Positions 5,047-22,052 of a stretch of 29,480 nucleotides of DNA are shown piece after piece; positions within the stretch are counted from its first letter, which is position 1, and the number at the start of each line of letters is the position of its first letter. The position numbers and the translations under genes were made by a program. The stretch comes from a virus. The stretch spans positions 1 through 29,480 of the IMG/VR virus record IMGVR_UViG_3300017772_000075. One strand, 5' to 3'. Under the pieces are notes generated by a model. It saw only the letters and a program-made list of their open reading frames with translations, was not told the DNA's origin and did not search any database.

Positions 5047-5728
5047 CGAACAAGAAGTAAAAGATGAAGTAGGAGAAGTAGCAGAAAGACCAGAATGGTT
5101 ACCAGAGAAGTTTTTTAAAGATGGTAACCCTGATTATGAAGGACTAGCAAAGTCTTATACTGAAGCTGAAACTTATATTGGTAAGAAAAAAGAAGACTTA
5201 ACTACAGAAATAAAGACACAATTAGAAGAAGAAACTCTTAAAGCTGTACCTGAAACTTATGTATTACCAGAAATACCAGACACATATGAAACAGAAACAC
5301 CTCTTATGGATGGATGGAAAACTTATTGTAAAGATAATAAACTAAGTCAAGAAGCATTTGATAAAGGAATAGACTTATTTATACAAAGCCAACCACAAGT
5401 AGATATAGATGGTGAAAAGAAAAAGCTAGGTGAAAATGCAAATCAACGTATTGAAGCTGTAAGTTTGTGGGTAAATAAAAACTTTGATGAAGGACAAAGA
5501 CCTATGTTAGAAATGATGTGTTCTACTTCACAAGGTGTAGAAGCAGTAGAAAAAATTATGGGTATGTTACAAAATAGTATGTCACAAACTACAGATAATT
5601 TTATTGCTGGTAAAACAAAAGAAGACTTACAAGAGATGATGAAGGACAGAAGATATTGGCACGCACCTAGTAGAGATGAAACTTATATAAGACAGATAGA
5701 CTCAGCATTTGAAAAATTATATAAATGA
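5018..5728 (+). CDS. Capsid assembly scaffold protein
   Basis: AAGGAAGGT upstream of ATG 5018 is a good ribosome site. The 236-residue product is acidic and helical, with an N-terminal acidic leader, the motif RPEWLPEKFFKDGNPDYEGL at about residues 24-43 that is frequent in podovirus scaffolds, and a C-terminal basic/aromatic tail (about 208-236, MKDRRYWHAPSRDE). In T7-like phages such a C-terminal segment is the part that meets the capsid. It directly precedes a GNAT-like gene and then the major capsid gene. Scaffold is the clear reading by position and sequence type. Confidence 0.88.
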   Translation: MSEQESLINSEQEVKDEVGEVAERPEWLPEKFFKDGNPDYEGLAKSYTEAETYIGKKKEDLTTEIKTQLEEETLKAVPETYVLPEIPDTYETETPLMDGWKTYCKDNKLSQEAFDKGIDLFIQSQPQVDIDGEKKKLGENANQRIEAVSLWVNKNFDEGQRPMLEMMCSTSQGVEAVEKIMGMLQNSMSQTTDNFIAGKTKEDLQEMMKDRRYWHAPSRDETYIRQIDSAFEKLYK

Positions 5729-6180
5729 TTATTGAAGTAAGACCAAGTACAGAAAAAGATGCTAGATATATTGGAAACAATATGCGAATGGAAGACATTA
5801 TAGAGTTAGATGCTGTAGGATCTAAACCTATAGAGTCTATGCTTTACCCTTTTACTTGTACAAATGCACAAACATTTACATTATTCTTTGATAAAGAACC
5901 TGTTTTGTGTGGTGGAACTATAGGAGAAAGTATAGGTGTAGCAAGATTATGGATGTTAGCTACTAAAAAAGCATATACAAAACCTTTAAAATTAGCATTA
6001 TTAAGTAGAAAATACGTAGATTTTTTACAGCAACCTTATGAATATATGTACAATTATGTACATACTGGTAATGAAAAAGCAGTAAAACTTCTTAAACATC
6101 TTAATTGTACTTTTGATTCGGAGATTACAAAAAATAATAATTTAAGTTTTGTAAAATTTTCTCGTTGCAAAAAACATTAA
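5725..6180 (+). CDS. GNAT-like protein, T7 gp13/DUF2833 type
   Basis: The product (151 residues) starts VRPSTEKDARYIGNNMR and has ESIGVARLWMLAT at about residues 68-80, then a VHTGNEKAVKLLKHLNCTF segment at about 112-130. That last part has the N-x-x-A-x-x-L-L-x-x-L pattern of acetyltransferase motif B. It looks like the DUF2833 family that includes T7 gp13, a protein needed for T7 virion morphogenesis. Whether it acetylates anything is not known. In T7, gp13 lies after the tail genes; here it sits between scaffold and capsid, coupled by ATGA to the scaffold stop. No clear promoter is seen. Confidence 0.75.
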   Translation: MIIEVRPSTEKDARYIGNNMRMEDIIELDAVGSKPIESMLYPFTCTNAQTFTLFFDKEPVLCGGTIGESIGVARLWMLATKKAYTKPLKLALLSRKYVDFLQQPYEYMYNYVHTGNEKAVKLLKHLNCTFDSEITKNNNLSFVKFSRCKKH

Positions 6181-6299
6181 TATAATATATAGATTTATAT
6201 AGCAGTCCCAGAGTATTGAAGTATTGCCCATTTGGATAACCTTACAAAGATAGGCTGGATAAACTCGGTGAAACTTTTTTAACTTAATAAGGAGGACTT
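6181..6299 (+). promoter_or_regulatory. Structured leader before capsid gene
   Basis: This is the longest gap of the late module and holds no gene. From 6208 to 6268 it can fold: CC-A-GAGT (6208-6214) pairs with ACTCGG (6263-6268), with small hairpins inside (CCATTTGG near 6228-6235, and CCTTACAAAGATAGG near 6239-6253). It is followed by a run of six T at 6275-6280 and a strong Shine-Dalgarno AAGGAGGA (6288-6295). The string GGATAAACTCGGTGAAAC looks like an RNA core element and recalls sequence that accompanies group I introns or homing endonucleases in phages, from memory only. It may set the high expression of the capsid gene. Confidence 0.45.
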
Positions 6300-7121
6300 A
6301 TGTCTATAGGAATAAGCACTGCTTTTATAAAACAGTTTGAGAGTGATGTTCACATGGCTTATCAGCGAATGGGATCAAAACTTAAAGACACCATCAGACA
6401 AAAACCAAGTGTGAATGGTAATCAAGCAGTTTTTCAAAAAGTAGGAAAAGGCTCTGCTGTCCAAAAATCAAGACATGGACAAGTGCCGATCATGAATATC
6501 GACCATACAAACGTAACAGTTACACTACAAGATTTCTTTAGTGCTGACTATGTCGATAGACTAGACGAACTAAAAACCAACATTGATGAAAGAATGGTAG
6601 TAGCACAGAGTAGTGCTGGTGCGTTAGGAAGAAAGACTGACGAACTAATTACTACTGCTCTTGATGGAACATCAAACCTATCAGGTAACTCTGACTCAGA
6701 TGGTTTAACAATAGCCAAGATAAATGGTGTATTTGGATCAATGGGTGAAGGTGATATACCTGATGATGGTGATAGATACTTTGTAGTATCACCTGATGGT
6801 TGGATTGATTTATTAGGAATCAATGCGTTTGCTGATGCAGACTTCATTGGACCAGATGAACTTCCATACAAAGGTGGTATGGTTGCTAAAAGATGGCTTG
6901 GTTTTATGTGGATGACACATAGTGGACTACCAGTAACAGGTGGTAGAAGACAATGTTTCGCATATCACAGATCTGGAATAGGTGTAGCTATGGGTGCAGA
7001 TGTAACCACAGAAATTAACTACATTCCAGAAAGAGTGTCTAATTTAATAACTGCATATATGAGTCTGGGTGTTGTCTTAATTGACGATAACGCAGTCTTT
7101 GAAGTGCAAATAACTGAATAG
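6300..7121 (+). CDS. Major capsid protein
   Basis: The gene has the strongest ribosome site of the late module (AAGGAGGACTT before ATG 6300). The 273-residue product has HK97-fold capsid character: an N-terminal helix, a loop with HTNVTVTLQDFFSADYVDRLDE (about 69-90), RYFVVSPDGWIDLL (about 159-172), FADADFIGPDELPYKGGMVAK (about 178-197) and a TSHSGLP-like strand (MTHSGLPVTGG, 205-215). It is short against T7 gp10A (345 residues) but in the range of compact marine podovirus capsids. Location after scaffold is canonical. Better G+C than its neighbours fits high expression. Confidence 0.93.
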   Translation: MSIGISTAFIKQFESDVHMAYQRMGSKLKDTIRQKPSVNGNQAVFQKVGKGSAVQKSRHGQVPIMNIDHTNVTVTLQDFFSADYVDRLDELKTNIDERMVVAQSSAGALGRKTDELITTALDGTSNLSGNSDSDGLTIAKINGVFGSMGEGDIPDDGDRYFVVSPDGWIDLLGINAFADADFIGPDELPYKGGMVAKRWLGFMWMTHSGLPVTGGRRQCFAYHRSGIGVAMGADVTTEINYIPERVSNLITAYMSLGVVLIDDNAVFEVQITE

Positions 7122-7382: not shown

Positions 7383-7418
7383 AAGGAGTGGGGAGAGCAA
7401 TCTCCCCAAACCTATATG
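7383..7418 (+). promoter_or_regulatory. Shine-Dalgarno split from start codon by GNRA hairpin
   Basis: AAGGAG at 7383-7388 is 27 bases from ATG 7416, too far for normal initiation. The bases between form a perfect 8-bp hairpin, TGGGGAGA (7389-7396), GCAA tetraloop (7397-7400), TCTCCCCA (7401-7408). If the hairpin stacks out, AACCTAT leaves a 7-base spacing, which is optimal. Phage T4 gene 38 is a known case of a hairpin that shortens this distance. There is no T run behind the stem, so it is not a simple terminator. No better ribosome site lies closer to ATG 7416. Confidence 0.75.
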
Positions 7419-18839: not shown

Positions 18840-20915
18840 ATGGCTATATTAGTTAACGATACGACTCCCAGAAACCAGTACACTGCATCTGCTGGGCAAA
18901 CAGTATTTGCTTACTCATTTGAAATATTTGAAGTAACAGATATTAAGGTGTTTAAAGGATCAACTCTTTTAACTTTTGCAAGTAGTCCATCAGGTGTTAC
19001 ACAATATTCTGTATCTGGTGCTGGTACAACTGGTGGTGGTAATATTACTCTCGGAGGTGGTGCTACTGTAAATGATATTTATACTATAGTACGTGACATA
19101 CCAGTTAAAAGAACAACAGACTTTCCGTTATCTGGACCATTTGTTATTGACAGTTTAAATACTGATCTTGATAAAATGATTGGAATGATGGGTGAAAGAG
19201 AAGATGAGATATCAAGGTCAATAAGACTAAAAGATGAAGACCCTTCAGCAACATTAACATTACCATTAAAAGCAGATAGAGCAAGTAAAGTACTTACATT
19301 TAGTAGTACAGGTAATGTAGAAACTTCTATTACTGCAACAGATGTAAGCACAGTTGCTGGTATATCAAGTAACATAACTACTGTAAGTGGTATAGCTAGT
19401 AATGTAACTACTGTTGCTGGTATTTCTAGTAACGTAACTACAGTAGCTGGTAAATCATCAGAGGTTACTTCAGTGGCGGCAGTTGCTAGTTTAATAACTT
19501 CTGACTTTGTAAGTGATTTAAATACATTAGCAGTTACAGATGTAATAAATGACATCAATACATTAGCAACTAGTGATATAGTAAGTGACTTAAATACATT
19601 AGCAACATCAGATATTGTTAGTGATTTAAATACTTTGGCAACAAGTGATATTGTTTCTGATATAAACACTCTTGCTACAAGTGATATAGTAAGTGATTTA
19701 AATACACTTGCTACAAGTGATTTTGTATCAGATTTAAATACAATAGCTACTTCAACAAACGTAAATAATATTGCAACAGTTGCTGGCAATAACTCAAACA
19801 TAAACACAGTAGCTGGTAACAATTCTAATATTTCTACTGTAGCTGGAATATCAAGTAATGTTTCTACTGTTGCTGGTATTACAAGTAATATTGCTACAGT
19901 AGCTGGTATATCAGCAAATATAACTACAGTTGCTGGTAACAATGCAAACATAACTACATTAGCTGGCATAAGTACAGATGTAACATCTCTTGCAAGTGCT
20001 CTTGCATCTACTACAAATTATGCTGTAACAGTTGCTAGTGGTACATTGTATGGTGGTGGTTCTGGTAATGTATTTTATTTAGATGGTACAGGTAATCCAG
20101 CTATTACTTTAACAAGAGGTAATACATATGTATTTGATCAAAGTAATTCTAGTAATAGTGGACATCCTATAGCATTTAGAACAAGTACAGATGCAAGTTA
20201 TACTACAGGTGTAACTTCTACTGGTACTCCTGGAAATGCTGGAGCAAAAACTACGTTTGTTGTACCTTCAGATGCACCAGCTTCGTTAAAGTATTATTGT
20301 ACCTCACATGGAAATGGTATGGGTAATGTTATTACTACAAATACATCAAATATAAATGTTGTTGCTAGTAATATAGGAGAAGTAAATAGTTTTGCACAAA
20401 GATATAGGGTAGCTAGTAGTGATCCTACGGCATCATTAGATGAAGGTGATCTAGCTTATAATAGCACAGCTAATGTTCTTAAATATTATAATGGATCAGC
20501 TTGGGTAACTATAGTTGCTGGTTCTTTAACAGATGTAGTACAAGATGGAACTCCTCAATTAGGTGGAAATCTTGATGTTCAGACAAATTCAATAATATCT
20601 ACATCTAATAGAGATATTAATATTACACCAAATGGATCTGGTAATGTAGTTTTAGACGGAATAAGTTATCCTTCTAGTGATGGATCAGCAGACCAAGTTC
20701 TTAAAACTGATGGTTCTGGAACAATTAGTTTTGGTACAGTACAAGCAAGTGAGTTGACAACACAAGGAAATTACTTTAGTAATTATAATAGTGTAAGTAG
20801 TGATGTTACATCAACAACAGCCAGCACAAAGAACGCATTTCTCTTTGGACCGATAACTGTAAGTGGTAGTTCTACTTGGACTGTAAGTGGTAATGGCACA
20901 TTAGAAATATTTTAA
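18840..20915 (+). CDS. Modular tail fibre with cupredoxin-like domain
   Basis: TTAAGGAT precedes ATG 18840. Residues 1-150 are the T7-type fibre N-terminal attachment domain (TPRNQYTASAGQTVFAYSFE, VRDIPVKRTTDFPLSGPF, NTDLDKMIGMMGE). Residues 171-380 are short tandem repeats, described separately. Residues about 393-500 form a beta domain with a complete type 1 copper ligand set: H442, C487, H490, M494. Residues about 573-635 are a module also found in the next gene (QLGGNLDV, ITPNGSGNVVLDG, VLKTDGSGTISFG). The C-terminal 50 residues are Ser/Thr-rich, likely trimerisation or tip. A fibre role is clear; the ligand it binds is not known. Confidence 0.92.
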   Translation: MAILVNDTTPRNQYTASAGQTVFAYSFEIFEVTDIKVFKGSTLLTFASSPSGVTQYSVSGAGTTGGGNITLGGGATVNDIYTIVRDIPVKRTTDFPLSGPFVIDSLNTDLDKMIGMMGEREDEISRSIRLKDEDPSATLTLPLKADRASKVLTFSSTGNVETSITATDVSTVAGISSNITTVSGIASNVTTVAGISSNVTTVAGKSSEVTSVAAVASLITSDFVSDLNTLAVTDVINDINTLATSDIVSDLNTLATSDIVSDLNTLATSDIVSDINTLATSDIVSDLNTLATSDFVSDLNTIATSTNVNNIATVAGNNSNINTVAGNNSNISTVAGISSNVSTVAGITSNIATVAGISANITTVAGNNANITTLAGISTDVTSLASALASTTNYAVTVASGTLYGGGSGNVFYLDGTGNPAITLTRGNTYVFDQSNSSNSGHPIAFRTSTDASYTTGVTSTGTPGNAGAKTTFVVPSDAPASLKYYCTSHGNGMGNVITTNTSNINVVASNIGEVNSFAQRYRVASSDPTASLDEGDLAYNSTANVLKYYNGSAWVTIVAGSLTDVVQDGTPQLGGNLDVQTNSIISTSNRDINITPNGSGNVVLDGISYPSSDGSADQVLKTDGSGTISFGTVQASELTTQGNYFSNYNSVSSDVTSTTASTKNAFLFGPITVSGSSTWTVSGNGTLEIF
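19350..19979 (+). repeat. Tandem 10- and 12-residue coding repeats in fibre shaft
   Basis: Inside the fibre gene three repeat blocks follow each other. Bases 19350-19469 code four copies of a 10-residue unit (TVAGISSNVT-like). Bases 19503-19754 code seven copies of a 12-residue unit (DIVSDLNTLATS-like). Bases 19770-19979 code seven copies of a 10-residue unit (IATVAGNNSN-like). The DNA is less conserved than the protein, with many synonymous changes, so the repeats are selected at protein level and are not very recent. They probably build a fibrous shaft. Because of this repetition a long antisense frame is open here, which I reject as a gene. Confidence 0.92.
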
Positions 20916-20924
20916 GGAGTAAAT

Positions 20925-22052
20925 ATGGCAAGCACAATTAAAGTAGATAAAGTACGAGGAGCGGCTAGTACGGAAGTTAAGCTAGATGGAAACTTAGATG
21001 TAAATGGAAACAGTATTGTATCTGCATCTGATGGCAATATAGCTATAACTCCAAATGGTTCAGGTAAAGTAATAGTAGATGGATTATCATTACCTACTGC
21101 TGATGGTACTAATGGACAATTTTTAAAGACAGATGGATCAGGAAACATATCCTTTGGAAGTGTATCATCTGATGTTAGTGGAGATTCAAGTCCTCAACTA
21201 GGTGGTGATTTAGATGTTAATGGCAACTCGATTGTATCAACATCAAATGCAAGTATAAACATTACACCCAATGGTACAGGAGATGTAAATTTAGGTGCTG
21301 ATACAGTAATGGTTGGTGACAATAATGTTAACGCAATAGTTACTACTCAAGGTACAGGTGATCTTACACTTAGCACAAACTCAGGTACAAATTCAGGAAC
21401 AATAGCAATAGCTGATGGAGTAAATGGTGACATATCAGTTACACCAAATGGTACTGGTAAAGTTATTCTTGATGGATTATCTCATCCAACATCAGATGGT
21501 TCAGCTAATCAAGTTTTACAAACAGATGGTTCTGGTAATTTAAGTTTTGCTACTCCTGGAGGTGGTAAAATATTACAAGTAGTGACTGTTCAAAAAAATG
21601 ATACTTTTTCTACATCAAGTACTTCAGATACAACAGTTACAGGATTAACGTTAGATATTACTCCGTCAGCAACTACAAGTAAAATTGCTATATTTTTAAA
21701 TTTAACAGCTTGTATGGGTCATTATACTGATTCAAATGGTCAAAATAGTAATAACAGAGTAGATATTTTTAGGGGATCAACAAATATTGTTGAAGATCAA
21801 ATTACTGGTCAAGGAAGTAGAACAGGAACTTTATCTCAACATGGATACAGAGGTGCTGGTGGTAGTGTTGAAGGATTAGCTTATAGTTTAATAGATTCAC
21901 CTAGTTCAACATCTCAACAAACTTATACTGTAAAAGTAAAAGCTAGAAGCAGTACTATTTTTGTAAATAAACATTCAGATGATTCAAGCAATAACGCATC
22001 ACACACACCTAGAGGTATATCAACTTTAACTTGTATGGAGATAGGAGCATAA
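20925..22052 (+). CDS. Second fibre / receptor-binding protein, 375 aa
   Basis: AAGGAG stands before ATG 20925. The protein lacks the portal-proximal fibre N-terminus of its neighbour. It is built of repeats of one module: residues about 20-80, 91-125 and 168-210 share GGDLDVNGNSIVS, ITPNGSGKVI and LKTDGSGNISF strings with residues 573-635 of the upstream fibre. The C-terminal half (about 213-375) begins KILQVVTVQKNDTF and has an alternating beta pattern, with His and Cys near the end; this type of C-terminal knob is common in marine phage fibres. It is therefore likely a tip or side fibre attached to the first fibre. Receptor unknown. Confidence 0.85.
   Translation: MASTIKVDKVRGAASTEVKLDGNLDVNGNSIVSASDGNIAITPNGSGKVIVDGLSLPTADGTNGQFLKTDGSGNISFGSVSSDVSGDSSPQLGGDLDVNGNSIVSTSNASINITPNGTGDVNLGADTVMVGDNNVNAIVTTQGTGDLTLSTNSGTNSGTIAIADGVNGDISVTPNGTGKVILDGLSHPTSDGSANQVLQTDGSGNLSFATPGGGKILQVVTVQKNDTFSTSSTSDTTVTGLTLDITPSATTSKIAIFLNLTACMGHYTDSNGQNSNNRVDIFRGSTNIVEDQITGQGSRTGTLSQHGYRGAGGSVEGLAYSLIDSPSSTSQQTYTVKVKARSSTIFVNKHSDDSSNNASHTPRGISTLTCMEIGA

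What the first reader, a model, noticed from the sequence alone, without database searches (positions are those of the whole stretch)
6181..6299. Structured RNA-like leader before the capsid gene
A 119-base gap in an otherwise tightly packed module has a long-range stem (6208-6214 with 6263-6268), inner hairpins, a T6 run and then the best Shine-Dalgarno of the late module. GGATAAACTCGGTGAAAC looks conserved-RNA-like, and I recall similar strings beside group I introns or homing endonucleases in marine phages. It may be an intron relic, a promoter/attenuator region or a capsid-level control RNA.
Basis: partly seen in the sequence, partly recalled or inferred. Interest (0 to 1): 0.52.

Follow-up and report, generated by a model that had tools for sequence, protein, structure and literature searches.

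The report
Conserved RNA leader before phage capsid gene
A small folded RNA, kept by evolution just in front of the capsid gene of many marine bacterial viruses and absent from the current RNA family library, probably controls how much capsid protein is made.

Summary
Window 6204-6265 folds into a rod with two nested copies of one 1x4 internal loop: an unpaired C on the 5' strand faces A-U-A-A on the 3' strand, with covarying stems around it. The same RNA lies directly upstream of the major capsid protein (MCP) gene in relatives. An IMG/VR motif scan gave 198 placements, 188 of them before an MCP gene; 25 of 26 virus records carry exactly one copy. Covariation is strong: 171 double-changed pair cells against 55.7 in shuffles and at most 28 in slid versions. 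HTVC010P-type pelagiphages carry a single-loop version in the same place. No Rfam 15 family matches. Intron relic and attenuator are not supported; a capsid-gene control RNA is. Most likely it is a cis-acting 5'-leader element that binds a protein through the repeated loop and sets MCP mRNA output. Partner and sign of the effect are inferred, not shown.

The parts
6165..6170 (+). -35-like hexamer TTGCAA (overlaps the end of the upstream CDS)
   Evidence: TTGCAA-N17-TATA in 16 of 16 distinct window-clade leaders; score not above shuffles; TTGCAA is also under protein-coding constraint
6188..6193 (+). -10-like hexamer TATAGA; predicted transcript start about 6200-6202 (inference)
6204..6206 (+). 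outer stem, lower 5' strand AGT (pairs 6263-6265)
   Evidence: 47 of 47 cells paired in 16 relatives, TA/AT exchange at 6206-6263
6207..6207 (+). outer unpaired C facing ATAA 6259-6262
   Evidence: alignment
6208..6211 (+). outer stem, upper 5' strand CCAG (pairs 6255-6258)
   Evidence: covariation
6221..6226 (+). inner stem, lower 5' strand GTATTG (pairs 6240-6245; 6224 and 6225 mismatched in the window)
   Evidence: covariation
6227..6227 (+). inner unpaired C facing ATAA 6236-6239
6228..6235 (+). inner hairpin tip CC-ATTT-GG
6236..6239 (+). inner bulge ATAA
   Evidence: direct repeat TGGATAACCT / TGGATAAACT at 6233 and 6256, spacing 23
6240..6245 (+). inner stem, lower 3' strand CCTTAC
6255..6258 (+). 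outer stem, upper 3' strand CTGG
6259..6262 (+). outer bulge ATAA
6263..6265 (+). outer stem, lower 3' strand ACT
6197..6276 (+). whole RNA element as matched by covariance model R1 (51.4 bits; the window is in the training set)
6290..6295 (+). Shine-Dalgarno AGGAGG of the MCP gene
   Evidence: sequence
6300..7121 (+). major capsid protein gene (PF19821 Phage_capsid_2, phrog_3437)

Best explanation
The gap encodes the 5' leader of the capsid mRNA. It contains a cis-acting structured RNA: a rod-like hairpin with two identical, same-orientation 1x4 internal loops (C facing ANAA) at a near-fixed spacing. Shown: conservation, structure by covariation, single copy per genome, strict linkage to the MCP gene, and absence from Rfam. 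Inferred: the invariant loops are recognised by an RNA-binding protein (phage-coded, or a widely conserved host factor), probably as a dimer or two cooperating copies where two loops are present. Binding then sets the output (stability and/or translation) of the MCP message, recalled as the most heavily used structural message of such phages. I lean towards a positive role, because the RNA usually ends about 31-41 nt before the start codon, does not overlap the Shine-Dalgarno, and in the window clade would form the very 5' end of a transcript from its own promoter.
For: Covariation: A1, 60 sequences, 118 double-changed cells against 38.6 shuffled (0 of 500 reach it) and at most 27 when slid; A3, 91 sequences, 171 against 55.7 and at most 28; HTVC010P-type, 29 sequences, 99.0% paired, 25 against 8.2. 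Held-out test: of 50 loci L316-L365, found by MCP protein profile and not used to build the model, 41 match at E<=0.01. Each has one match, on the + strand, at the MCP leader; one of the 50 (L336) has no leader in the contig. Linkage: 188 of 198 pattern placements precede an MCP relative, and 4 of the other 10 run off the contig. One copy in 25 of 26 records. Spacing: C-to-C 18-22 nt in 87 of 98 and G-to-G 23-27 nt in 90 of 98, though the pattern allowed 13-43 and 15-45. Distance from outer stem to start codon: 31-41 nt (10th-90th percentile) in the 49 leaders parsed. Promoter in register, 16 of 16.
Against: No expression, probing or binding data. Folding energy is no better than shuffles. The ribosome-binding region is not more open than when its letters are shuffled (mean unpaired 0.41 against 0.45; higher in 34 of 88), which gives no support to a ribosome-landing role. 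The promoter is seen only in the window clade and does not beat shuffles by score. In L310 a terminator-like hairpin sits just upstream of the RNA and no promoter was found there. Some MCP relatives lack a recognisable copy: Vibrio 448O51-1 and 1.179, DVV SI2, the faecal MT838907.
Confidence: 0.55

Rival explanations
1. Autogenous translational operator: MCP (or scaffold) binds the two loops and shuts off its own translation when free capsid protein accumulates.
For: Strict one-to-one linkage with the MCP gene; two identical sites suit an oligomerising protein; in the AACAA-bulge variants L080, L309 and L312 the outer 3' strand CCTTC(A/G)G is complementary to the Shine-Dalgarno region (read; L080 and L309 also), which would couple the fold to ribosome access.
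Against: In general the RNA lies clear of the Shine-Dalgarno, and pairing of the outer 3' strand with downstream sequence is not above shuffles (4.63 against 4.75 pairs, 71 leaders). Autogenous control by an HK97-fold MCP is recalled as unusual.
Confidence: 0.2
2. Nascent-RNA modifier of RNA polymerase, working like HK022 put: the RNA binds the elongating host polymerase and lets it read through terminators in the long late operon.
For: About 70 nt, directly downstream of a promoter-like pair in the window clade, like putL, which lies just downstream of PL and is about 70 nt (PMC9378689, passages). PF00940 phage RNA polymerase absent in 26 of 26 records, with T7 as positive control, so host polymerase is probably used.
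Against: Always tied to MCP, not to the first gene of the late operon; no model match in HK022; put has two side-by-side stem-loops, this has one rod.
Confidence: 0.15
3. Passive 5'-end stabiliser or RNase processing site: the stem at the 5' end protects the message, and the internal loops are cleavage or structural features only.
For: Predicted transcript start a few nt before the outer stem in the window clade (inference).
Against: Stem letters change freely while loop letters (C, A-N-A-A) stay fixed in distant lineages, and spacing is tight; a mere stem would not need that.
Confidence: 0.09
4. Relic of a group I intron or an intrinsic attenuator.
Against: No Rfam match; no terminator-like hairpin on the + strand in the gap; conservation and covariation of an 80-nt stand-alone element.
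Confidence: 0.01

Closest known systems
HK022 put RNA (putL/putR)
   Same: About 70-nt phage leader RNA near a promoter, in a phage that relies on host RNA polymerase; bulges and non-canonical pairs within stems (PMC9378689, passages)
   Different: put has two stem-loops and occurs twice per genome; this is one rod with repeated C/ANAA loops, once per genome, always at MCP; no covariance-model match in HK022
T7 gene 10 leader (phi10 promoter and capsid mRNA 5' leader)
   Same: Dedicated promoter and leader in front of the capsid gene (T7 annotation)
   Different: T7 uses its own polymerase; the only model match in T7 is a chance-level one on the other strand at 21112-21141 (9.2 bits), not at gene 10; no repeated loop known to me
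Rfam cis-regulatory RNA families (4227 models, release 15)
   Same: Kind of object: short conserved structured RNA in an mRNA leader
   Different: No family matches the window, 12 relatives, or 15 further loci at gathering score; only chance hits at lax E-values

Membership tests
Group I intron (RF00028) | Match to the Rfam covariance model | tested here: not met
   0 gathering hits in the window; not among matches at E<=10 for 6100-6400
Group I intron (RF00028) | Interrupts a coding exon | tested here: not met
   MCP ORF 6300-7121 intact, upstream ORF ends at 6180
Intrinsic attenuator/terminator | G+C-rich hairpin followed by a T run | tested here: not met
   No terminator-like site in 6181-6299
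HK022 put RNA | Sequence/structure similarity to put | tested here: not met
   R1 finds nothing in HK022 at E<=10
HK022 put RNA | Promoter-proximal position on host-polymerase transcripts | tested here: inconclusive
   Promoter-like pair in register in 16/16 window-clade leaders, not above shuffles by score; no T7-type RNAP in 26 of 26 records
HK022 put RNA | Suppresses termination through the beta-prime zinc-binding domain | not testable with these tools
   needs read-through assays
Riboswitch (aptamer plus expression platform) | Conserved alternative pairing that reaches a terminator or the Shine-Dalgarno | tested here: not met
   Outer 3' strand against downstream: 4.63 against 4.75 in shuffles, 71 leaders; seen only in AACAA variants L080, L309, L312
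Structured cis-acting leader RNA (general kind) | Covarying helices in homologues | tested here: met
Structured cis-acting leader RNA (general kind) | Consistent position before one gene | tested here: met
   188 of 198 placements before MCP; 75 of 86 HTVC010P-type leaders by pattern, the other 11 by eye
Structured cis-acting leader RNA (general kind) | Measured effect on expression | not testable with these tools
   no expression data held

The most novel reading that the evidence does not exclude
An RNA that modifies host RNA polymerase (put-like antitermination), or that is bound by capsid/scaffold protein to nucleate assembly where the protein is made, kept across marine podoviruses with very different base compositions and probably different hosts.
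Probability: 0.15. Interest if true: 0.88.

Novelty: new variant of a known kind. Interest (0 to 1): 0.62.

Why it matters
To my knowledge (recalled), structured leader RNAs of capsid genes are little known in DNA phages. This one has a sharp signature (a repeated C/ANAA internal loop at fixed spacing). It occurs in lineages whose capsid proteins are only about 29-35% identical, including cultured pelagiphages (HTVC010P, HTVC024P, Greip, Lederberg with one loop; Hodr with two), and it matches no Rfam family. If it controls capsid dosage, capsid expression in this marine virus group becomes directly testable in cultured phage-host pairs, and its binding partner would be a new phage or host RNA-binding activity.

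Tried and rejected
Folding energy as a test: no signal. RNAalifold on the MAFFT alignment found only the inner hairpin; the outer stem was found by column-by-column pair counts. A strict perfect-stem descriptor parsed 74 of 99 MCP-found leaders and 22 of 100 shuffles; at score 18 or more, 49 against 0. It fails the window clade, whose inner stem has two mismatches, so I relied on the covariance model. Sigma-70 scoring against shuffles: mostly not significant. T7-type phage promoters were considered for GC-rich clades because of CTATAGG-like strings, and dropped because no PF00940 polymerase was found. A general switch with the Shine-Dalgarno was tested and rejected except in three AACAA variants (L312 read). 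An unusually open ribosome site was tested and not supported. Cellular genomes: 27 contigs with one strict pattern, none before an MCP; a few reach E<0.001 with the model because they were chosen by the same letters. A resemblance of GGAUAAC to the 23S rRNA peptidyl-transferase strand was recalled from memory only and not pursued.

Rows left out: alignment A1 used 60 of the 74 representative cores listed; the 14 left out were L080 (variant bulge) and 13 with unusual linkers or doubtful placement. A3 holds the 91 of 100 loci that matched at E<=0.1; the nine misses were L080, L309, L312, L322, L329, L341, L342, L347, L357. Loci whose contig starts inside or just before the MCP gene had no leader and were not counted. 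About half of the A1 rows were chosen by the letters GGCCC, GCCC, GGAYAAC, so those letters are fixed by construction there; the covariation is in other columns, and the MCP-found and held-out sets are free of that bias. Single-loop claims for CKB-S2 and the Manatee Spring phages rest on reading plus partial model hits of E 0.22 and 0.14; the CKB-S2 relative L485 shows no clear copy.

Literature: searches returned no paper on an RNA before this capsid gene. I saw search listings and abstract starts only, except passages of PMC9378689.

Full report
What was checked. The window is a 29,480-base virus record. The finding lies between the end of a T7 gp13-like gene (5725-6180; PF11090) and the major capsid protein (MCP) gene (6300-7121; PF19821, phrog_3437). 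The gap, T run and strong Shine-Dalgarno are as described. No ORF of 20 aa or more on the + strand overlaps the gap. Folding energy is unremarkable (z = +0.85), and Rfam is silent.

Homologues. MCP protein searches in IMG/VR gave 80 loci at 60-100% identity. Lining up their leaders on the MCP start showed a repeated pattern...GG-C-CC...G-C-CC(loop)GG-AYAA-C...GG-AYAA-CC.... Read as RNA, these are two nested copies of one 1x4 internal loop: an unpaired C (rarely U) on the 5' strand faces A-Y-A-A on the 3' strand, each copy set between Watson-Crick stems. In the window the outer copy is 6204-6211 with 6255-6265 and the inner copy is 6221-6245; the direct repeat TGGATAACCT/TGGATAAACT at 6233 and 6256 is its visible trace.

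Linkage. Two gapped DNA patterns that do not use the protein gave 98 + 98 stretches in IMG/VR. They hold 198 placements: 188 have an MCP relative encoded directly downstream, 4 run off the contig, and 6 (in 5 loci) do not. One of the 6, L104, still scores 42 bits with the model (G016). In GTDB genomes one of these patterns hits 27 contigs, none before an MCP. A covariance model R1 from 60 leaders finds exactly one copy in 25 of 26 virus records and only the expected copy in the window (the window is in the training set). A profile search with ten MCPs brought in a lineage related to the cultured Pelagibacter phage Hodr that was not used for the model. Of its 50 loci L316-L365, 41 match at E<=0.01, each once, on the + strand and at the MCP leader; one of the 50 has no leader in the contig.

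Covariation. On A1, 88.9% of pair cells are standard pairs (shuffled 75.7%), and 118 cells are changed on both sides (shuffled 38.6, best slid version 27). On the model-made alignment A3 of 91 leaders the numbers are 89.6% (76.3%) and 171 (55.7; 28). A3 is fitted to the structure, so A1, a plain MAFFT alignment, is the fairer of the two. Inner-stem pair 33-81 of A3 shows CG 27, GC 17, UA 16, AU 8. In the window itself the inner stem has two mismatches (6224, 6225).

Spacing and variants. In 98 distinct pattern-found cores the two unpaired C's lie 17-26 nt apart (87 at 18-22) and the two G's before AYAA lie 21-30 nt apart (90 at 23-27), although the patterns allowed 13-43 and 15-45. In L080 both bulges read AACAA, and in L309 they read ATCAA and AACAA, as if the two loops change together; this is a few cases, not a statistic.

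A deeper relative. Leaders of HTVC010P-type pelagiphages, whose MCPs are about 29-35% identical to the window's, hold a single hairpin with the same loop: G-C-[stem]-A(G/T)AA-C. It is in 9 of 9 isolates fetched. Among 86 loci with enough leader, 75 match a pattern and the other 11 show it by eye with a changed lower stem. On 29 distinct cores 99.0% of cells pair (shuffled 92.6%) and 25 are changed on both sides (8.2; best slid 12); one measure, the number of pair types, is not above shuffles there. CKB-S2 and two Manatee Spring phages look like single-loop versions too, on weak evidence; the CKB-S2 relative L485 does not. Vibrio 448O51-1 and 1.179, DVV SI2 and a faecal phage show none, and MEP301 has a hairpin with a different bulge.

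Transcription. In 16 of 16 distinct window-clade leaders TTGCAA-N17-TATA precedes the RNA, with a spacer that changes in letters but not in length. In the window this is 6165-6170 and 6188-6193, which would start the transcript about 2-4 nt before the outer stem. The hexamers do not score above shuffled AT-rich sequence, and TTGCAA overlaps codons, so this is a footprint argument only. No T7-type RNA polymerase (PF00940) was found in 26 records, while T7 rings as control. Both facts suggest that host polymerase makes the message; the records may be incomplete.

Mechanism. Stem letters drift while loop letters stay, two copies keep their distance, and the element is found before the MCP gene. 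The simplest reading is a protein-binding leader of the capsid mRNA. It usually ends 31-41 nt before the start codon (49 parsed leaders), leaves the Shine-Dalgarno free, and shows no general switch, so I favour an effect on mRNA stability or recruitment over direct repression. Openness of the ribosome site is not above shuffles, which gives no support to a recruitment role. A subset (AACAA variants) could gate the Shine-Dalgarno by pairing. The put-like rival is weakened by the fixed link to MCP and by the different fold, but it is not excluded.

Known or new. No Rfam 15 family matches the window or 27 further loci at gathering score, and lax scans give chance hits only. Eight literature searches in an open-access library found nothing on it; most subscription papers are not covered. 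I rate it a new RNA element of a known general kind (structured cis-acting leader), with a new signature and unknown partner.

Noticed in passing
L083, L086, L089, L396-L401, about 60-100 nt before MCP: HTVC010P-type leaders carry a second hairpin-like repeat (AGACT...AGTCT) followed by AGACTTTAAAT just upstream of the loop hairpin.
   Followed up: no
L080, L309, L312 (MCP leader): In AACAA-bulge variants the outer 3' strand CCTTC(A/G)G is complementary to the Shine-Dalgarno region, a possible switch limited to this subgroup.
   Followed up: partly
L310 1121-1148 (similar in L077/L079): A strong terminator-like hairpin with a T run sits directly upstream of the RNA element, between the upstream gene and the MCP leader.
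   Followed up: partly
L333, L344, L348, L353 and relatives, about 100-125 nt before MCP: The Hodr-related lineage has an extra upstream hairpin (such as AGATAC...GTATCT), in several cases next to a TATAAG-like box.
   Followed up: no
window 7389-7408: Short G+C hairpin between the small ORF after MCP and the tail protein gene, terminator-like only on the minus strand.
   Followed up: no
window 19079-19969 (-): A 296-aa ATG ORF lies antisense within the tail fibre gene 18840-20915; it may be a composition effect.
   Followed up: no
L104 5467-5531: A pattern match with 42 bits to the model in a 45-kb virus contig with no MCP relative found downstream; unexplained.
   Followed up: partly
L084 (MEP301 MCP leader): Methylophilales phage MEP301 has GG-C-CCAGA..TCTGG-CATA-CC before its MCP, the same architecture with a different bulge.
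   Followed up: no
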